DNA of 64,000 nucleotides from Ruminococcus flavefaciens ATCC 19208. Lineage in GTDB: Bacteria > Bacillota > Clostridia > Oscillospirales > Ruminococcaceae. The translations under genes and the position numbers were made by a program. Each line of letters opens with the position of its first letter. Within the stretch, counting starts at the first letter, position 1. Below the pieces are notes generated by a model. The model was not told where the DNA came from, did not search any database, and saw only the letters and a program-made list of their open reading frames with translations. Positions 1,103 through 42,641 of this stretch are shown piece after piece. The DNA is taken from contig NZ_JAEF01000007.1 in assembly GCF_000518765.1 (NCBI RefSeq), positions 1 to 64,000 on the forward strand, in the 5' to 3' direction.

Positions 1103-1113
1103 GGTGAGCGCAT

Positions 1114-1326
1114 ATGTCGATAATCCTTAGACTTGACCGCGTAATGGCGGACAGAAAGATAAGCCTTAACGAACTCAGCGAGCGTGTTGGGGTAAGCAAT
1201 GTTAATTTGTCAAAGCTGAAAACAGGCAAGGTGAGTGCTATACGCTTCTCCACACTCAATGCCATATGCAAGGCACTGAAATGCCAGCCCGGAGATATAC
1301 TGGAATTCACTGACGACGAAGAATAA
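1114..1326 (+). CDS. YozG-like Cro/C1 helix-turn-helix regulator
   Basis: A 70-residue protein that is almost entirely one HTH_26/Xre DNA-binding domain: DRVMADRKISLNELSERVGV, then SNVNLSKLKTGKVSAIRFST and a final helix with LKCQPGDILEF, the usual end of this family. It starts 11 nt after the DUF2975 gene with GAGGTGAG as ribosome site. Such proteins usually control their own operon and partner membrane gene. The direct repeats at 437-454 and 524-541 are plausible binding sites, but this is inferred. The length is normal for the family. Confidence 0.9.
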   Translation: MSIILRLDRVMADRKISLNELSERVGVSNVNLSKLKTGKVSAIRFSTLNAICKALKCQPGDILEFTDDEE

Positions 1327-1396
1327 AAATTTTTTTAAACTCTCTGCACAATTACTCATTCCTTATGTGTGTTATATATGAAAGGAGGTCACAGCA

Positions 1397-1912
1397 ATGA
1401 ATAATGACAGTACTGCATTATACGCATTCAGAAAATACGGAAACACAGTTCTGCGCGCAGCCTTTGCGTTCAGCGGCAGCTATGCCGAGGCAGAGGATAT
1501 AGTTCAGGACGTTTTCCTTTCATTACATACAACACCCCGATCCTTTAATGACGATGAACATCTTAAAGCGTGGCTTCTCAGGGTAACGATAAACAAGTGC
1601 AAAAATCTAAGAAGAAGCTTCCGATTCAGCCGCACCTGTTCTATCGACGAAATAGAGCAGTCAGAGGCTATATATGAGATAAGCACCGAAGGGCGCGAGC
1701 TTCGCCGACAGATAGCGGAGCTTCCGCATAAGTATGCCGAGGTGATATTTCTTCACTATTATGAGGGATATTCCATAAAAGAAATAGCCGAGATAATTGA
1801 AAAGAATGAAAATACAGTAGGCTCACTGTTGAGAAGAGGACGGGAAAAATTAAGAGCTGAACTTGAAAAGGAGGATGAGCCATGCAGAGAGACGATTATA
1901 AAGACGCTCTGA
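1397..1912 (+). CDS. ECF (sigma-70 family) RNA polymerase sigma factor
   Basis: A 171-residue sigma factor with region 2 (YAEAEDIVQDVFLSLH then WLLRVTINKCKNLRR, about residues 25-75) and region 4 (LPHKYAEVIFLHYYEGYSIK, EIAEIIEKNENTVGSLLRRG, about residues 105-155). It directs RNA polymerase to a dedicated regulon, often its own operon. The ribosome site is AAAGGAGGTCAC. The last 31 nt overlap the next gene, which encodes a single-pass membrane protein of the kind that acts as anti-sigma factor, so the two are probably translationally coupled. The signal it senses is not evident. Confidence 0.93.
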   Translation: MNNDSTALYAFRKYGNTVLRAAFAFSGSYAEAEDIVQDVFLSLHTTPRSFNDDEHLKAWLLRVTINKCKNLRRSFRFSRTCSIDEIEQSEAIYEISTEGRELRRQIAELPHKYAEVIFLHYYEGYSIKEIAEIIEKNENTVGSLLRRGREKLRAELEKEDEPCRETIIKTL

Positions 1913-3657
1913 ATGAACTTCAGCTCAGCAGTAAATTCTGCGAAGAAATGGAGAAAAAGCTTGCGGAGAGCAAGCAGATAAATGAAGATGAGTACGAAGA
2001 TGTGGTAACTCACGTTGACGTAGTGAAGCCAAAAAGACATCGCGGACTTGCAGCAGCTGCGGCATTTGTTATATGTGCAGGCGCTGTGGGCGGCGGAGCT
2101 TATTATAGATACAATTCGACAAGCAACACTTTGCCTAAAGGCGAGCAGATGGTATACAATGATTATTACTGTCATTTTCCGTTTGCGACCCTTCCGATAC
2201 ATGATGCAGTATTTTACGTAAAAGACAGGGAGATCACTGCAACAGTAATTGCTTATGAAAGCATTGCCAAAAAGCTTCATAACTTTTTTGAGAATACCGA
2301 ATGGACTGAGGAAACTGCCAATGAAAAAGGTCTTACTATTTATAATACGGTCGGTATTTCATTTTCTGTCGAAAATTATAGCATAACAATAATATCTAAT
2401 GATACGGTAAAGGTATGCAAAGTAAGATATTTCGATGCAGACGGCAATGATATGGGGAATGATTGTGAATATACACCTCTGAATGGTTCTGTAAAGTATG
2501 AAAATTATGAATACGCCCTGCCCGAAGGGTCATACACAAGGCTTATTGCTCTCCTGCTTGAAAACAGAATGGATCAGTATACTGAATGTGGCATTATAAA
2601 TGCAAGCTTTAAGGACGCAGCTTATCATACTCCTAAAAGTGACGGAAATGTAAGTGAGCTTCAGGCATATTCTGTTTCAGAGCTTTTTGGAACTACACCA
2701 TGGAAAGAAGCGACGGACGAAATTGAAGAAGCTCCCGATGAAGATCCGATAACACTGGATGTGCAGAACGATAAGGCACGGTATAAACTCAGGCTTTATA
2801 AAGACAGTGTTTTATATATCAGCAAGATATCCCTTGACAGCGGTGAAGAGATCAAAAAAACTTACACGTGCGATGATTTAACGGTATATAACAGGCTAAG
2901 AAGTGTACTGAGCGATCTCGGAAACGGCAGATGGATAGATGTATGCCCTATAGATTTTAAATATGAAGATGCAGTTGTTTTCAGGAAAGAGAACGGTATT
3001 GAAAAAGCATATCTTGTGAATTTTGGAATGTATAACGAGCTTGCAGATTTGCTTGAAACATTTGAATGGTGCTTCTGGGGGGATATTTACATCCTTGAAA
3101 TGGGTGATGACGGATATTATACATATGGACTTGACGGAGAAAAGTTAGCAGAAAGCGATGATTCCTTTAAAATAGTCATCGGTGATCAGCTTATTTTAGT
3201 AAATGATAATAATAATGTAAATATAAAGTCATCTTACAGATACAGCATAAGTGTTAATGATTATAGTACGTTAAGGTCGTTTGTAAATAATATTACCGGA
3301 AGATCTATGGAGGGTGACGAGCTGGTTGACTGGTTTATCAATAATACGGTCAATAATGAAAATGGTATATATTATCAGGAGGCTGATGCAAATTATATTA
3401 AGAATTACAAACAGAAGATGGTAAATGATATATCAGAGATACGCAATAATCTGATGTCATTTGAATGGACAAAAACGATGGGTTCGGAATTTGATAACAA
3501 CGAAAACATTACCTATGGACCTTATTACGGCAGCGATATAAATATCTGCATAGATGCAAATGGAAATATGATGCTGAGTGTCGGTAACAGGCTGTATTTT
3601 TATCACACCGACGATGAACGTTTTACAGAGCTTTATGAGGGTATAAAAGCTCATTGA
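1882..3657 (+). CDS. Probable membrane anti-sigma factor with a large extracytoplasmic domain
   Basis: A 591-residue protein with a charged cytoplasmic N-terminus of about 55 residues (motif LSSKFCEEMEKKL), a basic stop (KPKRHR), one transmembrane helix at about 55-72 (Ala/Gly/Val-rich) and roughly 515 extracytoplasmic residues rich in Asp, Glu, Asn and Tyr. The topology and the start inside the ECF sigma gene make an anti-sigma role likely. The usual HxxxCxxC zinc motif is absent from the N-terminus. The large outer domain has no motif I recognise and may sense envelope conditions. The start is set by AAAAGGAGG 6-7 nt upstream. The anti-sigma role is inferred from context. Confidence 0.7.
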   Translation: MQRDDYKDALNELQLSSKFCEEMEKKLAESKQINEDEYEDVVTHVDVVKPKRHRGLAAAAAFVICAGAVGGGAYYRYNSTSNTLPKGEQMVYNDYYCHFPFATLPIHDAVFYVKDREITATVIAYESIAKKLHNFFENTEWTEETANEKGLTIYNTVGISFSVENYSITIISNDTVKVCKVRYFDADGNDMGNDCEYTPLNGSVKYENYEYALPEGSYTRLIALLLENRMDQYTECGIINASFKDAAYHTPKSDGNVSELQAYSVSELFGTTPWKEATDEIEEAPDEDPITLDVQNDKARYKLRLYKDSVLYISKISLDSGEEIKKTYTCDDLTVYNRLRSVLSDLGNGRWIDVCPIDFKYEDAVVFRKENGIEKAYLVNFGMYNELADLLETFEWCFWGDIYILEMGDDGYYTYGLDGEKLAESDDSFKIVIGDQLILVNDNNNVNIKSSYRYSISVNDYSTLRSFVNNITGRSMEGDELVDWFINNTVNNENGIYYQEADANYIKNYKQKMVNDISEIRNNLMSFEWTKTMGSEFDNNENITYGPYYGSDINICIDANGNMMLSVGNRLYFYHTDDERFTELYEGIKAH

Positions 3658-3700
3658 TAAGATATATTCCCGCATTCGGATACATGATGTGGAGGATTTT

Positions 3701-3750
3701 GCCGGCGCATTTCTGCCTATTCGGTCAAGGCAGAGATGCGCCGGCGGTTT
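3701..3750 (+). terminator. Rho-independent terminator after the sigma/anti-sigma operon
   Basis: GCCGGCGCATTTCTGCCT (3701-3718) pairs with 3728-3745 over 18 bp with one G-U pair, followed by GGTTTTATT. The -35 of the next promoter (3753) begins within the T-rich tail, so the two transcription units are tightly packed. Confidence 0.85.
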
Positions 3751-3752
3751 TA

Positions 3753-3781
3753 TTGACAAAAGCTGTTATGAGATGTATAAT
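3753..3781 (+). promoter_or_regulatory. Promoter of the lipase gene
   Basis: TTGACA (3753-3758), 17-nt spacer, TATAAT (3776-3781): a full consensus sigma-A promoter 54 nt before the lipase start. Confidence 0.85.
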
Positions 3782-3834
3782 CTTAGTGTGATGCGATAAT
3801 GTATCGGATATGTATTTTAATGTGAGGGAATTAT

Positions 3835-5157
3835 ATGGAATTACTGTCTCTTTTAATAAAAACAGTGCTTGGCTTTTGTGCAGTTAATATATACTTGATC
3901 TCTTTGATGTATATGCATGGTCCTATGAAAGTGCTGACGGTAGTAGTTGGTATATTATTTGTATTTGTCCTTTGCGCAGTTCCGTGCAGATCCCGTGAGA
4001 GCGGCAGGCTGGGACGTATGTACCGCGGCAGCCACCTTATGAAGATATTCCTTGCAGATGCGACAGCTGAGATAGCAGGCTGTATTTATTTCGCAGTGAG
4101 CGGAAAATGGGGGCTGACAGCTACGGTAAACACTGTCATAGCATTTTTACTGCTTGCACTGATGTTTCTGGTATCAGCTGTGAGGATATACACAAGCTCT
4201 GTACAGATAGGTATAAAATGGAGAGTATTGGGCGTGATATTCGCATTTATCCCCGTAATAAACGTTATTATCCTATTTAAGATGATAAAGCTTACAGATG
4301 ATGAGTACAGGATCGAATGTGACAGGCTTGCCCTTGACCGCTCGCGCGAGCAGGAAAGAGTATGCGCAACAAAATATCCGATACTCATGGTACACGGAGT
4401 ATTTTTCCGCGATGTAAGGGCTTTCAATTACTGGGGAAGGATACCGAAGGCACTTGAAAAGAACGGTGCAAAGATATATTATGGCTGTCAGCAGTCAGCG
4501 GACTCTGTAGCAGGCTGTGCCGCAGAGCTGAAAGCTAAGATAGACGAGATAGTTGAAAAGGAGAAGTGCGGCAAGGTCAATATAATAGCCCATTCAAAAG
4601 GCGGACTTGATTCGAGATATGCTATCTCCATGCTGGGAGCAGGTGATAAGGTGGCAAGTCTTACTACTATAAATACTCCCCACAGAGGCTGTCAGTTCGC
4701 GGAATATCTTCTGACGAAGGTGTCCGAGGGCTTTAAAAACGGGCTTGCCGATAAGTATAACACTGCACTCAAAAAGTTAGGCGATAGTGCTCCTGACTTT
4801 ATTGCGGCAGTTACTGATCTTACTGCGTCTGCCTGCGAGGAGATGAACAAGCTGTGCGAAGATGTTCAGGGCGTGTATTACCAGAGTGTGGGCTCACGGT
4901 CGGTATCGGCTATGGGCGGACGTTTCCCGTTGAATCTGTCTTATCATCTGGTGAAGTATTTCGACGGACCAAATGACGGACTTGTTTCTGTAGAGTCTAT
5001 GAAGTGGGGCGAGAAATTCATTTTTGCCGAACCAAGCGGAAAAAGGGGCATAACCCACGGCGATATCATAGACCTTAACCGCGAGAATATAAAGGATTTT
5101 GATGTAAGGGAGTTTTATGTTAAGTTGGTAAGTGACCTGAAAGCAAAAGGGTTCTGA
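3835..5157 (+). CDS. Membrane-anchored alpha/beta-hydrolase (triacylglycerol-lipase-like)
   Basis: A 440-residue protein. About 150 N-terminal residues carry four to five hydrophobic segments; the rest is an alpha/beta-hydrolase. The lipase domain starts at KYPILMVHGVFFRD, which includes the HG of the oxyanion region. The nucleophile Ser lies in IIAHSKGGLDSR (AxSxG, as in Bacillus-type lipases), followed by TTINTPHRG. Candidate acid and base residues are the Asp of GPNDGLVS and the His of GITHGDI. It probably hydrolyses ester bonds of lipids at the membrane; the substrate is unknown. Fusion of an integral membrane domain to such a lipase is less common than the secreted form. It appears monocistronic. 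Confidence 0.82.
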   Translation: MELLSLLIKTVLGFCAVNIYLISLMYMHGPMKVLTVVVGILFVFVLCAVPCRSRESGRLGRMYRGSHLMKIFLADATAEIAGCIYFAVSGKWGLTATVNTVIAFLLLALMFLVSAVRIYTSSVQIGIKWRVLGVIFAFIPVINVIILFKMIKLTDDEYRIECDRLALDRSREQERVCATKYPILMVHGVFFRDVRAFNYWGRIPKALEKNGAKIYYGCQQSADSVAGCAAELKAKIDEIVEKEKCGKVNIIAHSKGGLDSRYAISMLGAGDKVASLTTINTPHRGCQFAEYLLTKVSEGFKNGLADKYNTALKKLGDSAPDFIAAVTDLTASACEEMNKLCEDVQGVYYQSVGSRSVSAMGGRFPLNLSYHLVKYFDGPNDGLVSVESMKWGEKFIFAEPSGKRGITHGDIIDLNRENIKDFDVREFYVKLVSDLKAKGF

Positions 5158-31235: not shown

Positions 31236-32351
31236 ATGAAAAAGGTCGTATCCGCTGTCATATCGGCGGCAATTTGCTTTTCGGCTGTTCTGACTTTTCC
31301 TGTAATGGCAGCAGGAGTTCCGCTGGAAAGCTTGGTCGTTGACAGCAATGTAGGTGAATCGGGAACCTGCGGTGCAAATGCAGCATGGAGCCTTGAGGAC
31401 GGAACGCTTACTATCTCAGGTTCGGGAAAGCTCGTCAACTGGGCATCAAGTGCAAAGGTACCGTGGAATTCACTCAGAGGTAAGATAAAAACTGTTGTTA
31501 TAGAAAAAGGCATAACGAGCATAGGACCGTATGCTTTTCTCGGATGTGCAAATCTTTCATCTGTAAATATTTCCGATACTGTTACGGATATCGGTATGAG
31601 CACTTTTGTTTCCTGTACTTCGCTTGCTTCTGTTGATTTTCCTGCAAGTGTTTCAACTATAGGAAGAGAAGCTTTCAAAAACTGCGCCTCGCTCAGTACT
31701 GTAACTATCCGCAACAAGAACTGCAATATAGTAGGCTATTCCTTGACTATATGCAATTCCTCAGCCAACGATAAGGGCAGCTTCAGCGGCACTATCATAG
31801 GTGAAGCAAATTCAACAGCACAGACATTTGCTCAGAACTATGGCTATAACTTCAAGCTGCTCGGAAGTCAGCCTGAGATAACTACTACTGCGACCTCAAC
31901 GACAACAACAACAACTACAACTTCTACAACAAGCAAGACCACAACAACCACAACTTCTACAACAAGCAAGACCACTACTACAACCACAACTTCTACAACA
32001 AGCAAAACTACAACTACTACAACAAATGCACCAACCACAACCTCTATTGCTTCTACAACTGTTCCGATAACAACTACAACACCTGATCCTCACACTGAAG
32101 AGTATATGCTCGGCGATGTAAACGGAGACAAGCTTATAGATTCTGTTGACGCAAGCAAGGTCCTTGCGGAATATGCTGCTGTTTCATCAGGAAAGGCTTC
32201 AAAGTTCAATGACAGGGAATTCGCAGCTGCCGATGTTGATAAAAACGGCATGGCAGACTCAGTTGACGCATCAAAGATACTGGCATACTATGCTTATTCA
32301 TCTTCTGAAAACGGGAACGTAAAATCATTATCGGAATTTTTAAAGAAATAA
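31236..32351 (+). CDS. Secreted BspA-LRR protein with Thr-rich linker and dockerin
   Basis: A 371-residue protein: signal peptide (cleavage near VMAAG), a BspA/LRR_5 domain (about 40-210; LTISGSGKLVNW, PYAFLGCANLSSVNISDTV, TFVSCTSLASVDFPASVST), a Thr-rich linker of about 70 residues with SKTTTTT units, and a C-terminal dockerin (DVNGDKLIDSVDASKVLAEYA, DVDKNGMADSVDASKILAYYA). It is closely related through the LRR domain to the next, much larger protein. Probably a cellulosome- or surface-attached binding protein; no catalytic residues are evident. GGGAGG ribosome site. Confidence 0.9.
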   Translation: MKKVVSAVISAAICFSAVLTFPVMAAGVPLESLVVDSNVGESGTCGANAAWSLEDGTLTISGSGKLVNWASSAKVPWNSLRGKIKTVVIEKGITSIGPYAFLGCANLSSVNISDTVTDIGMSTFVSCTSLASVDFPASVSTIGREAFKNCASLSTVTIRNKNCNIVGYSLTICNSSANDKGSFSGTIIGEANSTAQTFAQNYGYNFKLLGSQPEITTTATSTTTTTTTTSTTSKTTTTTTSTTSKTTTTTTTSTTSKTTTTTTNAPTTTSIASTTVPITTTTPDPHTEEYMLGDVNGDKLIDSVDASKVLAEYAAVSSGKASKFNDREFAAADVDKNGMADSVDASKILAYYAYSSSENGNVKSLSEFLKK

Positions 32352-32436
32352 AAAACAAAAATAGGGAATGCATAGGGGAAAATCAGAATAACACTTTCCG
32401 GAGAGGCGGACGGTGCTTGAGAATGGAGAAATATGC

Positions 32437-35400
32437 ATGAAAAAAATCACAGCCGCAGTAATTGCGGCGATAATGAGCGTTTCATCAGCTTTTTGCTGCT
32501 CTCTTACAGTTTCTGAGGCGGCAGTTCCTCAGATAATTTCTCTTGAGGACAATAATGTTAAACAATCGGGTACCTGCGGAGCGGATGCCAGATGGGAATT
32601 GAACGGCGGCAAGCTTACGATCACGGGTACGGGAAAGCTTGTTAACTGGATGTCCTCGGATAAGGTACCGTGGAACACCTACAGAGGTCAGATCAATTCT
32701 GTTGAGGTCGGCAGCGGTATAACAAGTATAGGTCCGTATGCTTTTATGGCTTGTACAAGGCTTACATCTGTAAATCTTTCAAATACAGTCACAGATATCG
32801 GCATGAGTGCTTTCAATTCCTGTACAGCACTCAGCTCTGTTGAAATGCCTGTAAGTGTTACTACTGTGGGCAGAGAGTCGTTTAAAGCCTGTTCTTCGCT
32901 GAGAAGCATTACGATCTATAATTCAAAATGCAGTATAGTAGGAGATTCGTTGACTATCTGCAACAGCTATTCAGGCTCGAAAGGCTCGTATAACGGTGTT
33001 ATCAGAGGATATGAGGGCTCTCCTGCGCAGACATATGCCAAAACCTTTGGCTATCAGTTTCAGGTTCTGAGCGGTCAGCCGCCTGTTGCTACAACAACGA
33101 CTGCAAAGCCGACAACGACAACGACGACTACCACTACAACTACAACTACAACAACAACCACTACAACAACAACTACTACAACTACAACAACAACGACCAC
33201 AACATCTGCTTTTGTTTCGAGTGTAAGTGCTGATATCAAAGTAGGAAAAAATCCTTTCAAGACCACCTATACAATGGGTGAGAATATTGATCTCAGCGGC
33301 GGAACCGTTATACGTTCGTACAGGGAGTTCTACAGTGACGGAAAATACAGAGATGTTTTGCTTGATCCTCTTGACATGAAAGAGGCAACTTATTGGAGAG
33401 ACGGAGTATACATAAATACCGATGGCTTCAACAGCTATGAGGCAGGCAGGTATAAGATAAAGGTCGGCTATACTTATTCCGACTCTACAGCGTTTACGGA
33501 ATTTGAAGTGGAGGTTGAACCGCCAAAGACAACAACTACCACAACTACCACAACTACCACAACTACAACGACCACCACAACCACATCTACCACTACAACT
33601 ACTACCACCTCTGCAACAACAGAGACTACGACAACTTCTTTAGTTGTGGTAAGTGTAAATCCGAAGATAGATATAGATAATCTTCCGGATAAGACCACCT
33701 ATACCATAGGTGAGGAGCTTGATTTCAGCGGCGGTTCGGTAATAAGATGGTACACTGAGTATTACAATGACGGTACACACGCCGATGTTTTCCTTGACAG
33801 TCTGGCTATGGACGAGCTTTCATTCTGGAGAGACGGAGTATATATCAATACTTCCGCCTATGACAAGAACCGTGAAGGAAAATATACCATAAACATCGGA
33901 TATTCAGTTGGAGGAAGCGTTGTATATACGGATTATGAGGTAGAGGTCATAAGACCGCTGACTACCACTACTACGACCACAACGACTACCACAACAACTA
34001 CAACGGAGACTACGACCACAACTACGATGGTATATGTTGAAAGAATAGAGGCAGGGCTTGAGATAGGTCATATGCCGTATAAGACAACTTATACCACAGG
34101 AGAAGAGCTTGATCTCAGCGGCGGTACACTTATACGCTCTTACAGAGAGATATTCAGCGACGGTACATATAAGGATAATTACTTTGACTCTGTTGATATG
34201 AACAAGGTCTCTAAAAGGAAAAACGGTATAAGTCTTGATGATATTGAGTTTGAGAATACAACAGAGGGAATGTGCAATATAAGATTTACTTATATTTACA
34301 TGGATTCCGAAGCTTTTGTCGAGCTGCCCATAAAGGTGGAGGCTCCTGTAACAACGACAACAACTACTACAACGACTACCACTACAACTACAACTACAAC
34401 AACTACCACCACCACACCTAAGGGCGTAAAACCGTTCATACGCATAGAATCACTTCCCGAAAAGGTGGACTATGATATATATGAACGATATGACCTTACA
34501 GGCGGTAAGGTAAGGATAGGTCATATTGACGCCAACGGTAAGGAAAAATCAGAGGTCGTTCCCATGAATGATCCGAGAATAGTTAAAAAGACGGATTATA
34601 AATTCGATGTAAGAGGAGAGTATACATTTATTCTTAGCTACAACGAAAACGGCATCACTGTTACTGAGTCTTTCACTATGACCGTTGGTATGATAAAGCA
34701 GACGACAACAACTACAACAACAACTACAACAACAACTACAACAACCACGACTACAACGACGGCTACTACAACTACAGAACCTGTAACTACTACAAACGAT
34801 CCGCATTATACGGCTTCTGTTGAGATAGTAAGAATGCCCCATCAGACGGAGTATGAGATAGGTGAGGAATTAGACCTGTCAGGTCTGTATGTATCTGTTT
34901 ATCATACACAGGGCGGTGTTACCGAGCGTATTTACAGAAGCGACAGAGTTGCTTCAAGTCCCGACCGCTATGATGTAAGCGGATTTGACAGCCTTACTGC
35001 GGGCGTTAAGACTATCACAGTAACTTATAAGTCGTTTAATAATAATGCAAACGAATGGGTTTATGCATCAACAGAGTTCACGGTCGAGGTCAAAGAGAAG
35101 GAAACCACCACCACAACTACTACAACCACTACGACTACCACTACAACGACAACAACAGAAACAACTACAACCACTACCACAGCTCCGCCTGAGCCTGAGG
35201 TAGTGCTCGGAGATGTAAACGGTGACGGCAAGGTGGATTCAGTCGATGCCAGCAGGATACTTAAAGAATATGCCCTTGTTTCTACGGGATACAGCTCAAT
35301 ACTGAACGAAAAGCAGAAGGCGGCAGCCGATGTTGACGGAAGCGGAAGGATAGATTCCATTGATGCATCTGATGTACTTGCGTTCTATTCTTACGTTTCG

Positions 35401-35442
35401 GGCGGCGGTACTGTTACCGATATGAGAAAGTGGCTGAAATAA
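32437..35442 (+). CDS. Giant BspA-LRR / poly-Thr / Ig-like repeat protein with dockerin
   Basis: A 1001-residue protein: signal peptide, LRR domain (about 35-210) paralogous to the neighbour, then five Ig-like modules (Big_3-like; pattern TTYTxGEELDLSGGxxIRxY, DGVYIN, GKYTINIGY) separated by six poly-Thr linkers of about 20-35 residues, and a dockerin (DVNGDGKVDSVDASRILKEYA, DVDGSGRIDSIDASDVLAFY). The Thr runs mix ACA, ACT, ACC and ACG codons. The protein is probably an extended, flexible surface or cellulosomal stalk. A GTG 24 nt upstream is possible, but ATGGAG precedes this ATG by 9 nt and the signal peptide starts here. Confidence 0.9.
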   Translation: MKKITAAVIAAIMSVSSAFCCSLTVSEAAVPQIISLEDNNVKQSGTCGADARWELNGGKLTITGTGKLVNWMSSDKVPWNTYRGQINSVEVGSGITSIGPYAFMACTRLTSVNLSNTVTDIGMSAFNSCTALSSVEMPVSVTTVGRESFKACSSLRSITIYNSKCSIVGDSLTICNSYSGSKGSYNGVIRGYEGSPAQTYAKTFGYQFQVLSGQPPVATTTTAKPTTTTTTTTTTTTTTTTTTTTTTTTTTTTTTTSAFVSSVSADIKVGKNPFKTTYTMGENIDLSGGTVIRSYREFYSDGKYRDVLLDPLDMKEATYWRDGVYINTDGFNSYEAGRYKIKVGYTYSDSTAFTEFEVEVEPPKTTTTTTTTTTTTTTTTTTTSTTTTTTTSATTETTTTSLVVVSVNPKIDIDNLPDKTTYTIGEELDFSGGSVIRWYTEYYNDGTHADVFLDSLAMDELSFWRDGVYINTSAYDKNREGKYTINIGYSVGGSVVYTDYEVEVIRPLTTTTTTTTTTTTTTTETTTTTTMVYVERIEAGLEIGHMPYKTTYTTGEELDLSGGTLIRSYREIFSDGTYKDNYFDSVDMNKVSKRKNGISLDDIEFENTTEGMCNIRFTYIYMDSEAFVELPIKVEAPVTTTTTTTTTTTTTTTTTTTTTTPKGVKPFIRIESLPEKVDYDIYERYDLTGGKVRIGHIDANGKEKSEVVPMNDPRIVKKTDYKFDVRGEYTFILSYNENGITVTESFTMTVGMIKQTTTTTTTTTTTTTTTTTTTTATTTTEPVTTTNDPHYTASVEIVRMPHQTEYEIGEELDLSGLYVSVYHTQGGVTERIYRSDRVASSPDRYDVSGFDSLTAGVKTITVTYKSFNNNANEWVYASTEFTVEVKEKETTTTTTTTTTTTTTTTTTETTTTTTTAPPEPEVVLGDVNGDGKVDSVDASRILKEYALVSTGYSSILNEKQKAAADVDGSGRIDSIDASDVLAFYSYVSGGGTVTDMRKWLK

Positions 35443-35506: not shown

Positions 35507-35549
35507 GGACGGCTTTTTGAGGATCACCCTTGACAAGCCGTCCTTTTTT
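35507..35549 (+). terminator. Terminator overlapping the rpsL promoter
   Basis: GGACGGCTT (35507-35515) pairs with AAGCCGTCC (35535-35543), followed by TTTTTT. The loop and right arm hold the -35 and spacer of the next promoter. Confidence 0.88.
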
Positions 35550-35558
35550 GGGTATAAT
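35530..35558 (+). promoter_or_regulatory. Promoter of the str operon (rpsL)
   Basis: TTGACA (35530-35535), 17 nt, TATAAT (35553-35558). The -35 lies in the terminator loop and its last A is the first base of the right arm. Confidence 0.85.
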
Positions 35559-35629
35559 ATATCAGTGCGCAGACTCTATACCTTTTTATGGAAGGTCTGA
35601 CGCTTATATTATTGAAAAGGAGGAAAAAT

Positions 35630-36046
35630 ATGCCTACATTTAACCAGCTCGTTCGTAAGGGAAGAAAGGATCTTGAGACAAAGTCTACAGCTCCTGCACT
35701 TCAGAAGGGTTACAATGCAAAGAAGAAGACACAGATCAACCAGAGCTCACCTCAGAAGAGAGGCGTTTGCACTGCTGTAAGAACTGCTACACCTAAGAAG
35801 CCTAACTCAGCTATGAGAAAGATCGCCAGAGTTAAGCTCACAAACGGTTACGAAGTAACTTCTTACATCCCGGGTATCGGTCACAACCTTCAGGAGCACA
35901 GCGTTGTTCTCATCAGAGGCGGACGTGTTAAGGATCTCCCTGGTGTGCGTTACCACATCATCAGAGGTACTCTTGATGCACAGGGCGTTGCTAACCGTAA
36001 TCAGGCTCGTTCCAAGTACGGTGCTAAGAAGCCTAAGCAGAAGTAA
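35630..36046 (+). CDS. rpsL: Ribosomal protein S12
   Basis: A 138-residue S12 of the 30S decoding centre. The conserved core is present: [19 protein letters not shown], the loop [20 protein letters not shown] and [10 protein letters not shown]. Lys is present at the positions where streptomycin-resistance changes occur (TPKKPNS and GRVKDLP), so the sequence looks streptomycin-sensitive in type. An in-frame upstream ATG is rejected because this one has AAGGAGG 8 nt upstream and gives the normal N-terminus ([12 protein letters not shown]). First gene of rpsL-rpsG-fusA. Confidence 0.98.
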
Positions 36047-36276: not shown

Positions 36277-36747
36277 ATGCCAAGAAGAGGTAAAATCGCA
36301 AAGCGTGATGTATTACAGGATCCTGTATACAATTCAAAGCTCGTTACACGTCTCATCAACAATATCATGTTAGACGGTAAGAAGGGCGTTGCGCAGAAAA
36401 TAGTTTACGGTGCATTTGAGATCGTAGCTGAAAAGACAGGCAAGGATGCTCTTGAGGTGTTCGAGCAGGCTATGGAGAATATCATGCCTGAGCTCGAGGT
36501 AAAGGCTCGCCGTCTCGGTGGTGCTACTTATCAGGTTCCTATGGAGGTTCGTCCTGAGAGAAGACAGACTCTCGGTCTCCGCTGGATCACTAAGTACTCC
36601 AGAGAGAGAAACGAGAAGACCATGAAGGAAAGACTTGCAGGTGAGATCCTCGACGCTCTTAACGGCACAGGCGGTGCTTGCAAGAAGCGCGACGATACAC
36701 ACAAGATGGCAGAGGCAAACAAGGCGTTTGCTCACTACCGCTGGTAA
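36277..36747 (+). CDS. rpsG: Ribosomal protein S7
   Basis: A 156-residue S7, primary binder of the 3' domain of 16S rRNA. Typical features: [56 protein letters not shown], and the end [13 protein letters not shown]. The length is standard for bacteria. AAGGAGGG ribosome site close to a long-range stem in the spacer. It lies 24 nt upstream of fusA. Confidence 0.98.
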
Positions 36748-36771: not shown

Positions 36772-38850
36772 ATGTCAAGAGATTGTTCACTTGAAAATAC
36801 AAGAAATATCGGCATAATGGCCCACATTGACGCAGGTAAGACCACAACCACAGAGCGTATCCTTTTCTACACAGGTGTTAACCACAAGATCGGTGAAACA
36901 CACGAAGGTTCCGCTACTATGGACTGGATGGAGCAGGAGCAGGAGAGAGGTATCACAATTACTTCCGCTGCTACTACTTGCTACTGGGCAGGCCACAGAC
37001 TTAACATCATCGACACACCTGGCCACGTTGACTTTACAGTAGAGGTTGAGCGTTCACTTCGTGTACTCGACGGTTCTGTAACAGTTCTCTGTGCTAAGGG
37101 CGGCGTTGAGCCACAGTCAGAAACAGTTTGGAGACAGGCTGATAACTATAAGGTACCACGTATGGCTTATGTAAATAAGATGGACATTATGGGTGCCAAC
37201 TTCTATCATGTTATTGACATGATGAAGGACAGACTTAAGTGTAATGCTGTTCCGATCCAGCTCCCTATCGGTGCTGAGGACGAATTCAGAGGTATTATCG
37301 ACCTCGTTGAGATGAAGGCTTACATTTATACAAACGATCTCGGTACAGACATCAAGGTTGAAGATATCCCTGATGATATGAAGGAGATCGCTCAGAAGTA
37401 CCACGATGAAATGGTTGAGCACGTTGCTGAGCAGGACGAAGCCCTCATGGAGAAATACTTTGAGGAAGGCGAGCTTACTCAGGAAGAGATCAAGACCTGC
37501 ATCAGAAAGGCTACTATAGCTAACCACATGGTTCCTGTAACCTGCGGTACTTCATATAAGAACAAGGGTGTTCAGAAGCTCCTCGATGCTATCATCGACT
37601 ATATGCCTTCACCACTCGACGTTCCTGCTATCAAGGGTGTTAACCCTGATACAGAGCAGGAGGAGGACAGACCTTCTTCTGATGACGAGCCATTCTCAGC
37701 TCTCGCATTCAAGATCGCTACTGATCCATTCGTTGGTAAGCTTGCGTTCTTCCGTGTATATTCAGGCGTAGTTAATCAGGGTGATACAGTTCTCAACGCT
37801 ACAAAGGACACTAAGGAGCGTTTCGGCCGTATCGTTCAGATGCACGCTAACCACAGAAAGGACCTCACAACTGTTTACTCAGGCGATATCGCTGCAGCTG
37901 TTGGTCTTAAGAATACAACTACAGGTGATACACTCTGTGATGAAAAGCATCCTATCATTCTCGAGTCTATGGAATTCCCGGAGCCTGTTATCCAGCTCGC
38001 TATCGAGCCTAAGACAAAGGCTGGTCAGGAAAAGATGGGTATCGCTCTCGCAAAGCTTGCTGAAGAGGATCCTACTTTCAAGACATGGACAGACGAGGAA
38101 ACAGGACAGACTATCATCGCAGGTATGGGTGAGCTTCACCTCGATATCATCGTTGACCGTCTCCTTCGTGAGTTCAAGGTAGAGGCTAACGTTGGTGCTC
38201 CTCAGGTTGCTTATAAGGAAACAATCAAGGGCAGCGCAGACATCGACTACAAGTACAAGAAGCAGTCTGGTGGTTCAGGTCAGTACGGTCACGTTAAGAT
38301 CAGAGTTACTCCTAACGAGTCAGGTAAGGGCTATGAGTTCACAAACGCTGTTGTCGGCGGTTCTATTCCTAAGGAATATATTCCTGCTGTTGACGCAGGT
38401 ATCCAGGGCGCAATGAAGGCCGGTATCCTTGCAGGCTACGAAGTAGTTGACGTTAAGGTAGAGCTTTACGATGGATCATACCACGAAGTTGACTCGTCAG
38501 AAATGGCATTCAAGATCGCAGGTTCTATCGCATTCAAGGAAGCTCTCAAGCAGGCTAACGCAGTTCTCATGGAGCCTGTTATGAAGGTTGCAGTTATCGT
38601 TCCTGATGAATATCTCGGAACAGTTATCGGTGACCTCAGCTCACGTCGTGGACAGATCCAGGGACAGGAGTCAAGATCAGGTTCAATCCAGGTCGACGCT
38701 CTCGTACCACTTTCAGAAATGTTCGGTTACACAAGCGACCTCCGTTCAAATACACAGGGTCGTGGACAGTACACAATGGAACCACACAGCTATGAGGAAG
38801 TTCCGAAGAGCATTGCTGAAAAGATCATGGCTAACAGAGCTAAGAACTGA
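36772..38850 (+). CDS. fusA: Elongation factor G
   Basis: A 692-residue translational GTPase driving ribosomal translocation. G1 [15 protein letters not shown] (about 17-30), switch [10 protein letters not shown]3 DTPGHVDF, G4 NKMDIMGA. Domains II-V follow, including the IV/V junction with [20 protein letters not shown]. Length and motifs are standard. AAGGAG ribosome site. Unusually, it is followed not by tuf directly but by six micro-ORFs in 840 nt. Confidence 0.98.
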
Positions 38851-38873
38851 TAGTTCAATTAAGGTATACAAAT

Positions 38874-38942
38874 ATGCTTGAATGGTTAAGAAAAATATTC
38901 AGCGGCGGAGGCTGTGGCGGCGGTGGCGGACACAGCTTCTGA
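38874..38942 (+). CDS. Micropeptide 1 of the fusA-tuf array
   Basis: 22 codons. The peptide begins MLEWLRKIF, a short amphipathic helix (hydrophobic face L2, W4, L5, I8, F9; charges E3, R6, K7), continues as a Gly-rich stretch with a single Cys at position 14, and ends GGHSF. AAGGTATA lies about 9 nt upstream of the ATG, 23 nt after the fusA stop. It would be co-transcribed with fusA, as no promoter is seen. It resembles no family I know. The Cys is unique among the five copies. Coding status is supported by the parallel copies below. Confidence 0.75.
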   Translation: MLEWLRKIFSGGGCGGGGGHSF

Positions 38943-38975
38943 TAAACTGCTGATGCACAAAAAGGTATAATAAAT

Positions 38976-39041
38976 ATGCTTGATTGGTTAAGAAGAATTT
39001 TCGGCGGCGGAAGCAGCGGCAGTGGCGGACACAGCTTCTGA
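38976..39041 (+). CDS. Micropeptide 2 of the fusA-tuf array
   Basis: 21 codons: starts MLDWLRRIFGGG, then a Ser/Gly run, and ends GGHSF. It differs from copy 1 by E3D, K7R and by Ser for Cys and some Gly. AAAAAGGTATA is upstream at the usual spacing; the distance from the previous stop is 33 nt. It is nearly identical to copy 3 at the DNA level, indicating a recent duplication or gene conversion. Confidence 0.78.
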   Translation: MLDWLRRIFGGGSSGSGGHSF

Positions 39042-39074
39042 TAAACTGCTGATGCACAAAAAGGTATAATAAAT

Positions 39075-39140
39075 ATGCTTGATTGGTTAAGAAGAATTTT
39101 CGGCGGCGGAAGCAGCAGCAGTGGCGGACACAGCTTCTGA
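39075..39140 (+). CDS. Micropeptide 3 of the fusA-tuf array
   Basis: 21 codons, identical in protein to copy 2 except Gly15 to Ser (GGC to AGC). Same AAAAAGGTATA ribosome region and TGATAA double stop. The two copies share the full 99-nt period almost without change. Confidence 0.78.
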   Translation: MLDWLRRIFGGGSSSSGGHSF

Positions 39141-39172
39141 TAAACTGCTGATGAACAAAAAGGTATACGAAT

Positions 39173-39235
39173 ATGTTTGAATGGTTAAAAAGACTATTTG
39201 GCGGCCACAGCGGTGGCGGCGGAGGCTGGTTTTGA
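39173..39235 (+). CDS. Micropeptide 4 of the fusA-tuf array
   Basis: 20 codons: starts MFEWLKRLFGG, then HS moved to positions 12-13, five Gly, and ends GWF. The first nine residues keep the pattern of the others by conservative changes (L2F, R6K, I8L). The C-terminal aromatic is kept although the HSF tail is replaced by GWF. Spacing to the previous stop is 32 nt. Confidence 0.75.
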   Translation: MFEWLKRLFGGHSGGGGGWF

Positions 39236-39267
39236 TAACCCGCTGATACACAAAAGGGTATACGAAT

Positions 39268-39336
39268 ATGCTTAAATGGTTAATAAGTTTATTTTCAGGT
39301 AACGGAAGCGGTGGCGGTTCCAGTCATAGCTTCTGA
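39268..39336 (+). CDS. Micropeptide 5 of the fusA-tuf array
   Basis: 22 codons: starts MLKWLISLFSG, then an Asn/Gly/Ser-rich middle, and ends SSHSF. It is the most diverged copy at codon level (TTA, TCA, GGT, CAT), yet W4, L5, F9 and the HSF tail are kept. It has fewer charges, only K3. AAAAGGGTATA is upstream. Confidence 0.75.
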   Translation: MLKWLISLFSGNGSGGGSSHSF

Positions 39337-39425
39337 TCATCTGCTGATGCACTGAAATAATAATTAATTTTGCGAAACTATTTTTAAAACATCTTTTTAA
39401 ATAATATAATAAGGAGCGATATGAA

Positions 39426-39515
39426 ATGATTCCAGTAATTCCATGGATTATATACTATCTCATGACACACGGTAATAGCAGTGATGACACACATTACAGC
39501 TTTGGTGCTGACTGA
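39426..39515 (+). CDS. Micropeptide 6, divergent member before tuf
   Basis: 29 codons: starts MIPVIPWIIYYLMTHG, a strongly hydrophobic and aromatic segment, then a Ser/Asp stretch and HYSFGAD at the end. The HxSF motif echoes the HSF tail of the tandem peptides. AAGGAGCGAT, the best ribosome site of the array, is 9 nt upstream. An overlapping ATG 5 nt earlier gives only a two-codon frame. It lies 175 nt before tuf. Relation to the others is inferred from place and motif only. Confidence 0.6.
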   Translation: MIPVIPWIIYYLMTHGNSSDDTHYSFGAD

Positions 39516-39615
39516 TAATCAGTATTAACCGATGTTTTTTATACGGCAATAGCTGTATTAACAGGCAAAAATTATAAAAACACACGTTTCAGGAGAGATT
39601 TTTTTACTGAAACAC

Positions 39616-39644
39616 TTGAATTTACAGAAATAATCTGATATAAT
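39616..39644 (+). promoter_or_regulatory. Promoter of tuf
   Basis: TTGAAT (39616-39621), 17 nt, TATAAT (39639-39644), 46 nt before tuf. tuf can thus be transcribed apart from the peptide array. Confidence 0.75.
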
Positions 39645-39690: not shown

Positions 39691-40890
39691 ATGGCTAAGG
39701 CTAAATTTGAAAGAACCAAACCACATGTAAACATTGGTACAATCGGACACGTTGACCACGGTAAGACAACTCTTACTGCTGCTATCACAAAGACTCTCGC
39801 TCTGAAGGGTCAGGCTCAGTATGAGGCTTACGATATGATCGATAAGGCTCCAGAAGAGAGAGAGCGTGGTATCACAATCAATACAGCACACGTTGAGTAC
39901 GAGACAGACAAGCGTCACTATGCTCACGTTGACTGCCCAGGTCACGCTGACTACGTAAAGAACATGATCACAGGTGCTGCTCAGATGGATGGTGCTATCC
40001 TCGTTGTTGCTGCTTCTGATGGTCCTATGGCTCAGACAAGAGAGCATATCCTTCTCGCTCGTCAGGTTGGCGTTCCTGCAATCGTTGTATTCATGAACAA
40101 GGCTGACCAGGTTGACGACGAAGAGCTCCTCGAGCTCGTTGAGATGGACATCCGTGACCTTCTCACAAGCTATGATTTCCCTGGCGACGACACACCTATC
40201 ATCAAGGGTTCAGCTCTTGCAGCTCTTAACGCTCCTGATGATCTTAACGATCCTGCTTACAAGCCAATACTCGACCTCATGGACGCTGTTGATGAGTACA
40301 TCCCAAGCCCTGAGAGAGACGATGCTAAGCCATTCCTTATGCCTATCGAGGATACAATGACTATTTCTGGTCGTGGTACTGTTGTTACAGGTAGAGTAGA
40401 GCGTGGAAAGCTCAACGTAAACGAGCCTGTTGAGATCGTTGGTCTTTCTGACGAGAAGCTCAACACAGTTGTTACAGGTCTTGAAATGTTCAGAAAGACT
40501 CTTGACTTCTGTGAGGCTGGTGATAACGTTGGTGCACTTCTCCGTGGTATCACAAGAGATCAGGTTGAGCGTGGACAGGTTCTTTGTAAGCCAGGCTCAA
40601 TTCACCCACACACAAAGTTCAGCGGTCAGGTTTACGTACTGAAGAAGGAAGAGGGCGGTCGTCATACTCCTTTCTTCAACAACTACAGACCTCAGTTCTA
40701 CTTCAGAACAACTGACGTTACTGGCGTTGTAACTCTTCCTGCTGATAAGGAAATGTGTATGCCTGGCGATAACGTTGCTATGGACGTTGAGCTCATCACT
40801 CCTATCGCTATCGAAGAAGGACTCCGTTTCGCTATCCGTGAGGGTGGTAGAACAGTTGGTTCAGGCGTTGTTACAAAGATCAACGAATAA
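39691..40890 (+). CDS. tuf: Elongation factor Tu
   Basis: A 399-residue GTPase that brings aminoacyl-tRNA to the ribosome. G1 [14 protein letters not shown] (about 18-30), switch [16 protein letters not shown]3 [16 protein letters not shown]4 MNKADQVD, and the three-domain length. The C-terminal end is [21 protein letters not shown]-like and standard. AAGGAGG ribosome site. Own promoter and terminator separate it from fusA and the ABC genes. Confidence 0.98.
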
Positions 40891-40999: not shown

Positions 41000-41911
41000 A
41001 TGGAATATATTCTACAGACCCAGCAGCTTAGCAAAAAGTACGGAAAATTCAATGCACTTTCTAATCTTACTATAAACGTTCCAAAGGGTGCTATATATGG
41101 TATGGTCGGAAGAAACGGCGCAGGTAAGACTACATTAATCCGTATAATCACGGGTCTTAACAATCCTACTTCGGGTGAATTCTCGCTTTTCGGAGTAAAA
41201 AATACTGATAAGAAGCTTCTTGAAGTCAAGAGAAAGACAGGAGCTGTTGTAGAAACACCTTCACTGCATCCTGATATGACAGCAAGGGATAATCTTATCC
41301 AGCAGACAAAGGCTCTGGGCATATCAGACGATAAGATAGATGAGCTCCTCAAGCTTGTTGGTCTTGGCAATACAGGCAAGAAAAAGGCTAAGGATTTCTC
41401 TCTCGGTATGCGTCAGAGACTTGGTATCGCTTTCTCACTGGTCGGCGATCCTGAGTTCCTTGTGCTTGATGAGCCAATAAACGGTCTCGACCCGCAGGGT
41501 ATCATTGAGGTTCGTGAAACTATTATCCGACTCAATCAGGAAAAGGGCATCACTATCCTCATTTCAAGCCATATCCTTGATGAGCTGGCTCGTCTTGCTA
41601 CTCACTACGGCTTTATCGAGCGAGGTCAGGTAATAAAGGAAATGAGTGCTGAAGAGCTTGAAAGAGCTTCACGCAGATACGTTCATATAAACGTAAATGA
41701 TACAGCTATCCTTGCTGATGTACTCAAAGGTATGGGCGCTGAATTCAATATCATATCAGAGAATGAAGCTGATATATATACACCTATGCAGGTAACTCCT
41801 CTTGTACTTGCTCTCAATGAGAAGAATTGCTTTGTTAACACCATTACCGAGAATCACGAAAGTCTCGAAAGCTATTTCATGGGTCTTGTAGGAGGTGCTC
41901 AGAATGTCTAA
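41000..41911 (+). CDS. ABC transporter ATP-binding protein, BcrA-like
   Basis: A 303-residue ATPase. Walker A GRNGAGKTT (about 36-45), Q-loop region GAVVETPSLHPDMTARDNL, signature FSLGMRQRLGIA, Walker B FLVLDEPINGLDPQG and the switch His in SSHILDEL. The extra C-terminal 80 residues and the ETPSLHPDMT segment are typical of the BcrA/lantibiotic-immunity subfamily. With the permease overlapping its end, it probably exports a peptide or amphipathic drug or confers self-protection. It lies 110 nt after tuf and about 1.5 kb from the micropeptide array. Confidence 0.92.
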   Translation: MEYILQTQQLSKKYGKFNALSNLTINVPKGAIYGMVGRNGAGKTTLIRIITGLNNPTSGEFSLFGVKNTDKKLLEVKRKTGAVVETPSLHPDMTARDNLIQQTKALGISDDKIDELLKLVGLGNTGKKKAKDFSLGMRQRLGIAFSLVGDPEFLVLDEPINGLDPQGIIEVRETIIRLNQEKGITILISSHILDELARLATHYGFIERGQVIKEMSAEELERASRRYVHINVNDTAILADVLKGMGAEFNIISENEADIYTPMQVTPLVLALNEKNCFVNTITENHESLESYFMGLVGGAQNV

Positions 41912-42641
41912 TTTACTCGCAGAAGGTTTCAGACGACTGTTTAAAGGAAAACGTTTTTACATTGTCCTCGCTATTATTATTGCTATTCCGACATTTGCAT
42001 CAATATTTATCAGAATAGTAGAGGGAGAAGCTGTAAACCTCGGCAGCGTTTTGTGCTTTTCAATGATAGGTACTATGACAATGTTCATCAGTATTACAGC
42101 AGGTCTGTTCATTATTAGTGACTTTAAGAACAATACAATACGAAATAAAATAATCATAGGTCATTCAAGAACTAAAATTTACCTTGCAAATCTGATAATT
42201 GCATTGTTTGTAGCTTTTGTTTATCAGTTGGTTTTCTGGCTTACACTTATTGGCTTATGCGGTACAATTATGGAGTTCGATGATTTCCCGTGTGCTGAAA
42301 TATTCCAGAATATGCTTCTTACACTGGCAATTGAATTTGCGTTCACAAGCTTCTTTGTATTCCTTTGTACATCATTAAGAAATACAGGCGGTTTTGTACT
42401 TTCACTTATGCTTGACACTATTGTAAATATGGTTGCAAGTCTTGTTGTAATGTTCGTAAAAAGTGAAAAACTTGCTAAAGCGATTGAAATTGCTGTTCCA
42501 AGCCTGCAGAGAAATGATTTTGCGTATAATCCTACAAATGTGCCAAGTAACATATGGTGGATGATACTTATTGATATTGGTATATGCATTGTTGCTACAA
42601 TTGCAGGTATAGAAATATTCAAAAGAGCTGATCTTAAATAA
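41904..42641 (+). CDS. ABC transporter permease, BcrB-like
   Basis: A 245-residue membrane protein with six hydrophobic segments, partner of the upstream ATPase. The ATG overlaps the ATPase stop by 8 nt (AGGAGGTG lies 6 nt upstream), so the two are translationally coupled. A GTG 9 nt earlier is part of that ribosome site and is rejected as start. The pattern FKGKRFYIVLAI, a short loop, FKNNTIRNKIIIGHSRTKIY is that of ABC-2-type permeases of bacitracin-like systems. Substrate unknown. Confidence 0.88.
   Translation: MSNLLAEGFRRLFKGKRFYIVLAIIIAIPTFASIFIRIVEGEAVNLGSVLCFSMIGTMTMFISITAGLFIISDFKNNTIRNKIIIGHSRTKIYLANLIIALFVAFVYQLVFWLTLIGLCGTIMEFDDFPCAEIFQNMLLTLAIEFAFTSFFVFLCTSLRNTGGFVLSLMLDTIVNMVASLVVMFVKSEKLAKAIEIAVPSLQRNDFAYNPTNVPSNIWWMILIDIGICIVATIAGIEIFKRADLK

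What the first reader, a model, noticed from the sequence alone, without database searches (positions are those of the whole stretch)
38874..39336. Five tandem micropeptide genes inside the str operon, between fusA and tuf
Five 20-22-codon ORFs repeat every 95-102 nt. Each has AAGG-TATA upstream, a start M-[LF]-x-W-L-x-x-[IL]-F (short amphipathic helix), a Gly/Ser-rich middle and a C-terminal Phe (GGHSF, GGHSF, GGHSF, GGWF, SHSF). Length differences are multiples of three, and codons vary while W4, L5, F9 and the tail stay, which indicates coding selection. Placement next to fusA and tuf suggests strong, growth-linked expression. They could be membrane-active peptides, signals, or precursors of a modified peptide, but no modification enzyme is adjacent. 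I know of no matching family.
Basis: partly seen in the sequence, partly recalled or inferred. Interest (0 to 1): 0.93.

Follow-up and report, generated by a model that had tools for sequence, protein, structure and literature searches.

The report
Tandem micropeptide genes after fusA
A Ruminococcus-type bacterium carries five tiny, related, apparently protein-coding genes squeezed between two core protein-synthesis genes; two other Ruminococcus genomes have a single copy in the same place, and what the peptides do is not known.

Summary
Five ORFs of 20-22 codons lie in the 840-nt gap between fusA and tuf, each with an AAGG/AGGG ribosome-binding site, an amphipathic M-[LF]-x-W-L-x-x-[IL]-F start, a Gly/Ser middle and a C-terminal Phe. 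They are probably translated. Single-copy homologues with diverged DNA sit in the same gap of Ruminococcus flavefaciens Y1 and a Ruminococcus MAG, and third codon positions vary most. A profile finds them in 3 of 125 genus genomes and nowhere convincing in family, order and class samples. No Pfam, NCBIfam or PDB-sequence match passes. Presence is patchy: the nearest sister of each single-copy genome lacks the gene.

Helix codons alone show no coding signature. Spacers are better conserved than the ORFs. Codon usage is not that of str genes. The array lies upstream of tuf's own promoter. The RNA folds strongly, with weak covariation support.

Best working model, with modest confidence: leaderless, membrane-targeted peptides, perhaps exported, designed like aureocin A70, LsbB/EntK1 or PSMs. 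No membership is shown. Peptidase_C39 was not found in the three carriers, which argues against double-glycine export. A lantibiotic-protection-like ABC pair follows tuf, but most relatives without the peptides have it too.

The parts
38874..38942 (+). micropeptide ORF 1, MLEWLRKIFSGGGCGGGGGHSF
   Evidence: profile E 4.4e-11 (the profile contains it)
38976..39041 (+). micropeptide ORF 2, MLDWLRRIFGGGSSGSGGHSF
39075..39140 (+). micropeptide ORF 3, MLDWLRRIFGGGSSSSGGHSF (recent copy of ORF 2, one base different)
39173..39235 (+). micropeptide ORF 4, MFEWLKRLFGGHSGGGGGWF
39268..39336 (+). micropeptide ORF 5, MLKWLISLFSGNGSGGGSSHSF
38943..38975 (+). first of four 32-33 nt spacers (38943-38975, 39042-39074, 39141-39172, 39236-39267) with CTGCTGATG-like block and AAAAGG-type ribosome-binding site
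   Evidence: less divergent than the ORFs
38861..38880 (+). possible weak hairpin pairing AAGG with the start codon region (also in the units of ORFs 2, 3, 5; not predicted for ORF 4)
39426..39515 (+). ORF29, MIPVIPWIIYYLMTHGNSSDDTHYSFGAD, strong Shine-Dalgarno (TAAGGAG), possible distant sixth member
   Evidence: no convincing match in the other 124 genus genomes (best other E 0.04); similarity to ORF 5 reached by 12 of 5000 shuffles, profile score by 147 of 2000 shuffles
39383..39410 (+). promoter-like TTTAAA-16-TATAAT before ORF29
   Evidence: 4 found in region, 3.0 expected
39586..39613 (+). inverted repeat just upstream of the tuf -35
   Evidence: similar element in many gaps of the genus
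39616..39644 (+). tuf promoter-like site TTGAAT-17-TATAAT
36772..38850 (+). fusA (EF-G), upstream gene
39691..40890 (+). tuf (EF-Tu), downstream gene
41000..42641 (+). ABC exporter pair (41000-41911 ATPase, nearest to lantibiotic-protection TIGR03740 but below its cut-off; 41895-42641 ABC-2 permease); neighbour, link to the peptides not shown

Best explanation
The array is a set of five genes for leaderless micropeptides, transcribed as the tail of the rpsL-rpsG-fusA operon and translated from their own ribosome-binding sites. Each peptide would insert its short N-terminal amphipathic helix into a membrane and present a flexible Gly/Ser linker with a C-terminal Phe tail. The most likely use is as a mix of related, exported, membrane-active or receptor-docking peptides against or between related bacteria, made in step with growth. 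This is the working principle of aureocin A70, LsbB/EntK1 or PSM peptides, without belonging to those families. Shown: existence, homology, location, coding constraint in the tail half, lineage restriction among the genomes searched, patchy presence, copy divergence. Inferred: transcription with fusA, translation, helix and membrane binding, export, target, and any role of the neighbouring ABC pair.
For: Coding: in-frame pN/pS 0.55 against 0.85 and 0.93; third-position excess 213 of 20000. In a simple random-substitution model started from ORF 1, 5 independent lineages with 8-12 changes each would all keep the ORF with chance about 0.006 to 0.0005. 6 of the 7 micropeptide ORFs have a recognised AAGG/AGGG site; the G036 one has none. 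Homologues of different DNA sit in the same gap of R. flavefaciens Y1 and of MAG AS06rmzACSIP_302. Amphipathic start: hydrophobic moment 0.53-0.85 for the 9-mers. Divergence: ORFs differ more than spacers between copies (58 of 183 against 14 of 96 positions; three overlapping pairs, spacers aligned by hand). Patchy presence needs at least 3 changes on a 29-row tree, as for accessory competition or signal genes. A lantibiotic-protection-like ABC pair follows tuf in all 3 carriers, with a permease that changes faster than the ATPase (63-69% against 92-94% identity to G013 and G019). [quoted passage not shown] aureocin A70 is four related unmodified small peptides with an ABC exporter (PMC10941976).
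Against: No exporter or immunity gene specific to carriers was found: the ABC pair is also in 11 of 14 informative non-carriers, and bPH2 proteins are in 12 of 12 genomes. Net charge is low (K+R minus D+E is 0 to +2), unlike strongly cationic leaderless bacteriocins. The helix is only about 9 residues. Helix codons show no third-position excess and pN/pS 1.03, so the helix sequence itself is not shown to be under coding selection. Codon use is not optimised. The neighbouring spacers are conserved too. No expression data exist here.
Confidence: 0.32

Rival explanations
1. Translated micropeptides that act inside the cell as membrane-associated helpers or regulators (for example of a transporter, a protease, or membrane-bound ribosomes), made with EF-G. 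Copy number sets the dose.
For: No signal-peptide-length hydrophobic stretch in the sequences, no Peptidase_C39 found in the 3 carriers, no carrier-specific exporter seen next to the operon; amphipathic start; location in the translation operon.
Against: A housekeeping role fits badly with presence in only 3 of 125 genus genomes and absence from the sisters G019 and G029. The copies diverge from one another.
Confidence: 0.25
2. Mainly a cis-acting RNA element: repeated hairpins (start-site hairpin plus GC-rich hairpin over the Gly codons and the stop) that act on the fusA transcript's 3' end or on read-through towards tuf. The ORFs are translated only as part of that control.
For: The array folds better than all 100 shuffles (z -4.40) and unit 1 better than all 200 (z -4.95). 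Spacers are better conserved than ORFs. Synonymous sites in codons 1-9 are constrained (pS 0.22 against 0.61 in codons 10-22). Two relatives folded have a hairpin after fusA in this place (z -5.00 and -2.77).
Against: The other four units have z -1.48 to -2.15 and the two homologues -1.92 and -1.85. Pairs changed on both sides: 2 of 22, a number reached by 239 of 500 shuffles, although the covariation score was reached by only 21 of 500. No Rfam family at gathering scores. A tuf promoter-like site lies downstream. Frames stay open in all 7 copies.
Confidence: 0.2
3. A repeat-expanded, nearly neutral insertion: a short ORF-bearing segment that amplified by slippage and misalignment and has no present function.
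For: ORFs 2 and 3 are near copies; indels lie largely in a triplet tract; patchy presence; the three-species comparison with ORF 1 alone gives no third-position excess (4785 of 20000).
Against: All 7 copies keep start, frame, length and final Phe; comparisons with ORF 5 or ORF 4 do give excess (278 and 977 of 20000).
Confidence: 0.13
4. Type I toxin-like small membrane peptides, like the tandem Ibs or Ldr families (recalled).
For: Tandem short ORFs with a hydrophobic start and a hairpin over the start site in most units.
Against: No minus-strand promoter-like site inside the array (consensus scan only). The hydrophobic part is 9 residues, not a transmembrane span. It sits in a core operon with no antisense partner seen.
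Confidence: 0.06

Closest known systems
Aureocin A70 type multi-peptide leaderless bacteriocins
   Same: several related, short, unmodified peptides (PMC10941976 passages); no leader and tandem order recalled
   Different: 20-22 aa, Gly-rich and weakly charged here; no dedicated transporter/immunity genes identified beside the array; no sequence relation found (Pfam/NCBIfam; aureocins not compared directly)
LsbB / enterocin K1 / EJ97 leaderless bacteriocins
   Same: design of N-terminal amphiphilic helix and flexible C-terminal tail (PMC5413573 passages)
   Different: helix about 9 residues, against 13-15 in LsbB and 16-19 in EntK1; tail ends in HSF, WF, RF or GF and not in the LsbB-type motif (motif recalled); receptor not tested
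Staphylococcal PSM-alpha operon
   Same: about 20-residue leaderless amphipathic peptides in tandem, exporter elsewhere (recalled)
   Different: PSMs are helical throughout (recalled); here only the first 9 residues look helical; ABC ATPase after tuf matches the Pmt models far below cut-off
Double-glycine (C39-processed) peptide pheromones
   Same: GG within two residues after the hydrophobic start in 5 of 7 peptides
   Different: leader would be only 11-12 residues, GG missing at that place in 2 of 7, and no Peptidase_C39 found in the 3 carriers
Type I toxins in tandem (Ibs, Ldr; recalled)
   Same: tandem short ORFs
   Different: no antisense promoter-like site seen, no transmembrane-length helix

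Membership tests
Leaderless bacteriocin (aureocin A70 / A53 kind) | several short related peptides with no leader | tested here: met
   (sequence only; translation not shown)
Leaderless bacteriocin (aureocin A70 / A53 kind) | strongly cationic | tested here: not met
   K+R minus D+E counted on the sequences: 0 to +2
Leaderless bacteriocin (aureocin A70 / A53 kind) | dedicated transport/immunity genes beside the peptides | tested here: inconclusive
   an ABC pair follows tuf in the 3 carriers but also in 11 of 14 informative non-carriers; bPH2 in 12 of 12 genomes, in G000 on other contigs than the array
Leaderless bacteriocin (aureocin A70 / A53 kind) | antibacterial activity | not testable with these tools
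   needs synthetic peptide
LsbB / EntK1 | amphiphilic N-terminal helix plus unstructured C-terminus | tested here: inconclusive
   hydrophobic moment 0.53-0.85 on 9-mers; no structure predicted (peptides below the tool's 30-residue limit)
LsbB / EntK1 | sequence relation or conserved C-terminal motif | tested here: not met
   no Pfam match at E up to 10, one sub-cut-off NCBIfam match to another family; the tails end in HSF, WF, RF or GF; LsbB motif recalled, LsbB itself not compared
Phenol-soluble modulins | helix over the whole peptide | tested here: not met
   residues 10-22 are Gly/Ser rich; read from the sequence
Phenol-soluble modulins | Pmt exporter | tested here: inconclusive
   ATPase after tuf scores 142 bits to PmtC (cut-off 375) and 111 to PmtA (cut-off 350); rest of the genome not searched for Pmt
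Double-glycine pheromone or bacteriocin | C39 peptidase-transporter in the genome | tested here: not met
   0 of 3 carriers, 4 of 9 non-carriers; G036 is 86% complete, so its miss is weak
RiPP precursor | modification enzyme nearby | tested here: not met
   neighbours are str genes, an ABC pair, a CBM6/dockerin protein and a methionine gamma-lyase; enzymes elsewhere not searched
Type I toxin | antisense RNA promoter opposite the ORF | tested here: not met
   no minus-strand site in the array, consensus scan only
Known structured RNA | Rfam match | tested here: not met
   none in the window at gathering scores; two matches far below gathering score, both to eukaryotic families and outside the array

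The most novel reading that the evidence does not exclude
A young, lineage-restricted family of leaderless micropeptides has been built into the elongation-factor operon, so that its output is tied to ribosome synthesis. The peptide mix diversifies by tandem duplication while the spacers stay nearly fixed. It would be a growth-coupled secreted competition or signalling system with its own helix-linker-Phe architecture, possibly served by the tuf-linked peptide ABC exporter.
Probability: 0.2. Interest if true: 0.78.

Novelty: new variant of a known kind. Interest (0 to 1): 0.5.

Why it matters
If translated and functional, it shows that one of the most conserved operons of bacteria can carry accessory, fast-changing micropeptide genes that the family libraries searched do not cover. 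It also gives a compact test of growth-coupled peptide secretion or membrane regulation in Ruminococcus, known as fibre degraders of gut and rumen (recalled). R. flavefaciens strain Y1, a named strain with a single copy, makes it directly testable.

Tried and rejected
Rejected or led nowhere. (1) Known family: no Pfam match for 7 peptides, and one NCBIfam match below its cut-off; no PDB sequence match for the profile; no phage match for ORF 5; plasmid matches to ORF29 at E about 9 only. ORFs 1-4 were not searched in phages, and no micropeptide in plasmids. (2) Wider spread: in 396 family, 394 order and 391 class genomes (samples, overlapping) the profile gave outside G000 only weak matches (best E 0.0045, 0.027 and 0.0018). 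I translated 17 of these and of the genus background matches. In one search the 8 minus-strand ones were read on the wrong strand; one search repeats all 17 on both strands. None has a Met start and a Phe end in a 20-odd-codon frame. The nearest in look are L129 (in a longer frame) and L189 (no Met before the motif). I rejected all 17 by eye; the other weak matches were not inspected. A first DNA pattern was too strict: it missed even the known copies and says nothing. A better pattern gave 16 GTDB and 3 IMG/VR stretches, all 19 translated, of which only Y1 and the G036 MAG are real. (3) Other peptide cassettes in the gap: in 86 fusA-tuf loci, ATG-started ORFs of 12 or more codons with a Shine-Dalgarno-like site occur only in G000 and G013. 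Dropped rows there: TTG rows at position 0-1 (a slicing fault of that script), one out-of-frame GTG row in G000, and TTG rows in L044, L047, L049, L064 (masked stretch) and L094, not tested further. (4) Double-glycine export and bPH2 as a carrier mark. (5) Recombination tract around the gap: differences in fusA and tuf are uneven (0 to 10 per 150 nt between sisters) with no tract centred on the gap. (6) Papers: the listings (capped at 4-15 papers of up to 596) show no paper on micropeptides between fusA and tuf, judged by title and abstract start. Only passages of PMC13289728, PMC5413573 and PMC10941976 were read; 'leaderless' has 0 occurrences in the first.

Full report
What is there. The window belongs to a Ruminococcus-like genome (G000, 3.59 Mb, 25 contigs). 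I infer the genus from the named relatives and the dockerin proteins in the window. The order is rpsL (35588-36046 as listed), rpsG (36277-36747), fusA (36772-38850), the gap, tuf (39691-40890), an ABC ATPase (41000-41911) and permease (41895-42641), all on +. In the 840-nt gap lie five ORFs of 22, 21, 21, 20 and 22 codons. Only M1, W4, L5 and the final F are invariant in the alignment with two homologues from other genomes. The window holds 5 matches to a strict pattern of such ORFs on + and 0 on -; the mean over 100 Markov windows was 0.04 on both strands together.

Distribution. A profile of the 7 peptides (the 5 plus 2 found below) searched in 125 genomes of the genus matched 3 at E 1.6e-8 or better: G000 (5 copies), G013 (1) and G036 (1). 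All other matches had E 0.034 or worse. The profile includes the two homologues, so their E-values are favourable by construction. They were found beforehand: G013 and G036 by reading fusA-tuf gaps, G036 also by tblastn at E 0.18. G013's peptide gene and its upstream DNA are the same as in R. flavefaciens Y1, and G036's contig fits the MAG Ruminococcus sp. AS06rmzACSIP_302 in length and peptide. In 396 family, 394 order and 391 class genomes (samples, overlapping) nothing convincing appeared besides G000.

The gap in relatives. fusA's C-terminus was found in 85 of 125 genomes at E up to 1e-30; the gap of the other 40 was not read. I held 86 loci from these (one second G026 place was left out), of which 83 show both ends. 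G000 has 840 nt, G013 243 and G036 247. The other 80 have 103-239 nt and no such ORF. 13 of the 22 nearest loci (L010-L031) have 168-169 nt with a hairpin-like stretch just after fusA, by eye; two were folded (z -5.00 and -2.77). Blastn of the five units finds in the other gaps only 12-nt matches. A tree of fusA plus tuf parts of 29 of the 30 nearest loci puts G000 beside G013 and G019. G019, without the gene, is nearer to G013 than G000 is, and G036's sister G029 lacks it. The label needs at least 3 changes. The gene is therefore gained or lost over short times. fusA and tuf flanks show no recombination tract centred on the gap, though differences are uneven.

Coding or not. In favour: in-frame pN/pS is 0.55 against 0.85 and 0.93 in the other frames (six copies, ORF 3 left out as near copy). 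Differences at positions 1, 2 and 3 are 0.32, 0.21 and 0.44; 213 of 20000 permutations reach the third-position excess. A ribosome-binding site precedes 6 of 7 ORFs; G036 has none that my pattern recognises. In a simple random-substitution model the ORF survives five lineages with chance 0.006-0.0005 for 8-12 changes each. Against or limiting: pN/pS is 1.03 in codons 1-9 and 0.48 in codons 10-22. The third-position excess comes from codons 10-22 only, and codons 2-9 give 6844 of 20000. Among three-species sets the result depends on the copy: ORF 1 4785, ORF 4 977, ORF 5 278 of 20000. Spacers between copies differ at 14 of 96 aligned positions, ORFs at 58 of 183 (hand-aligned spacers, three overlapping pairs), so likeness among copies by itself is no sign of coding. 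I put translation of at least some of the ORFs at about 0.85 (my judgement).

RNA. The array as RNA folds below all 100 shuffles (z -4.40). Unit 1 has z -4.95, units 2-5 -1.48, -1.90, -1.49 and -2.15, the homologues -1.92 and -1.85. A short hairpin pairs AAGG with the start region in ORFs 1, 2, 3, 5 and in G013, not in ORF 4, and hardly in G036. Over 7 units the named structure keeps 86.2% of cells paired (30 of 500 shuffles reach this). Two of 22 pairs change on both sides (239 of 500 shuffles do as well), while the covariation score is reached by 21 of 500. The structure was derived from five of these sequences, so slid controls are no fair test. An RNA role is not excluded.

Expression. A TTG-TAnnnT promoter-like site precedes tuf in 83 of 83 complete gaps (permissive pattern, no shuffled control run for it), and 53 of 83 have an inverted repeat with perfect arms of 7 or more next to its -35 (2 of 83 in a simple mononucleotide shuffle). 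The window has this too (arms of 7). The array is upstream of it, so the peptides would ride on the fusA side. Codons are not those of str genes: TTA 6 of 11 Leu against 2 of 87, GGT 5 of 31 Gly against 72 of 112. 'Strong, growth-linked expression' thus rests on position alone.

Neighbourhood. The ATPase after tuf fits best the lantibiotic-protection model TIGR03740 (235.8 bits, cut-off 309.75), and also PmtC of PSM export at 142 bits (cut-off 375). I looked at 17 relatives' stretches. Of these the pair is present in the 2 carriers (with the window, 3 of 3), in 11 of 14 informative others (one of them only as a 45-residue piece at a contig end), not found in 3, and cut off in 1. Against G013 and G019 the permease has 63-69% identity while the ATPase has 92-94% and EF-Tu 99%. 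It may be a peptide exporter or protection pump, but it is not tied to the micropeptides. Peptidase_C39 was not found in the 3 carriers and is present in 4 of 9 others. bPH2 proteins are in 12 of 12.

A possible sixth member. ORF29 (39426-39515) has TAAGGAG before its ATG and its own promoter-like site. Its likeness to ORF 5 is reached by 12 of 5000 shuffles, the best of six comparisons (others 57 to 4102), and the profile score is reached by 147 of 2000 shuffles. No other genus genome has it with confidence (best other E 0.04). Undecided.

Mechanism. My working model is a mix of leaderless, membrane-targeted peptides (confidence 0.32). The N-terminal 9-mer is amphipathic (moment 0.53-0.85), the middle flexible (read from composition), the Phe end invariant. 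The parallels are LsbB/EntK1 and aureocin A70 (passages) and PSM-alpha (recalled). Membership fails or is untested on charge, motif, helix length and dedicated genes, so this is 'works like', not 'is a'. Rivals are an intracellular membrane regulator (0.25), an RNA element (0.2), a near-neutral expansion (0.13) and a type I toxin (0.06).

Verdict. Real, without a match in the libraries searched, narrowly distributed in the genomes searched, with unknown function. Interest 0.5.

Noticed in passing
39586-39644: An inverted repeat abuts the -35 of the tuf promoter-like site; the site is in 83 of 83 complete fusA-tuf gaps of the genus and a perfect inverted repeat (arms 7 or more) in 53 of 83. The arms differ between species, so pairing looks kept; a regulatory element of tuf is possible.
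   Followed up: partly
35507-35560: Terminator-like hairpin (GGACGGC...GCCGTCC-TTTTTT) whose 3' arm region overlaps the TTGACA -35 of a promoter-like site before rpsL (read by eye); similar in layout to the tuf element.
   Followed up: no
41000-42641: Lantibiotic-protection-like ABC pair directly after tuf in 11 of 14 informative relatives without the peptides and in all 3 carriers, with a permease that changes much faster than the ATPase.
   Followed up: partly
L012, L013, L015-L017, L019, L022-L028 (gap just after fusA): Hairpin-like conserved stretch 3' of fusA in 13 near relatives that lack the micropeptides; the carriers have the peptide gene in its place (read by eye, two folded).
   Followed up: partly
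39426-39515: ORF29, a 29-codon ORF with strong ribosome-binding site and own promoter-like site, without a convincing match in 124 other genus genomes.
   Followed up: partly
32413-35442 and 31236-32351: Proteins with long poly-Thr linkers and dockerin-like ends just upstream of the str operon (read from the translation).
   Followed up: no
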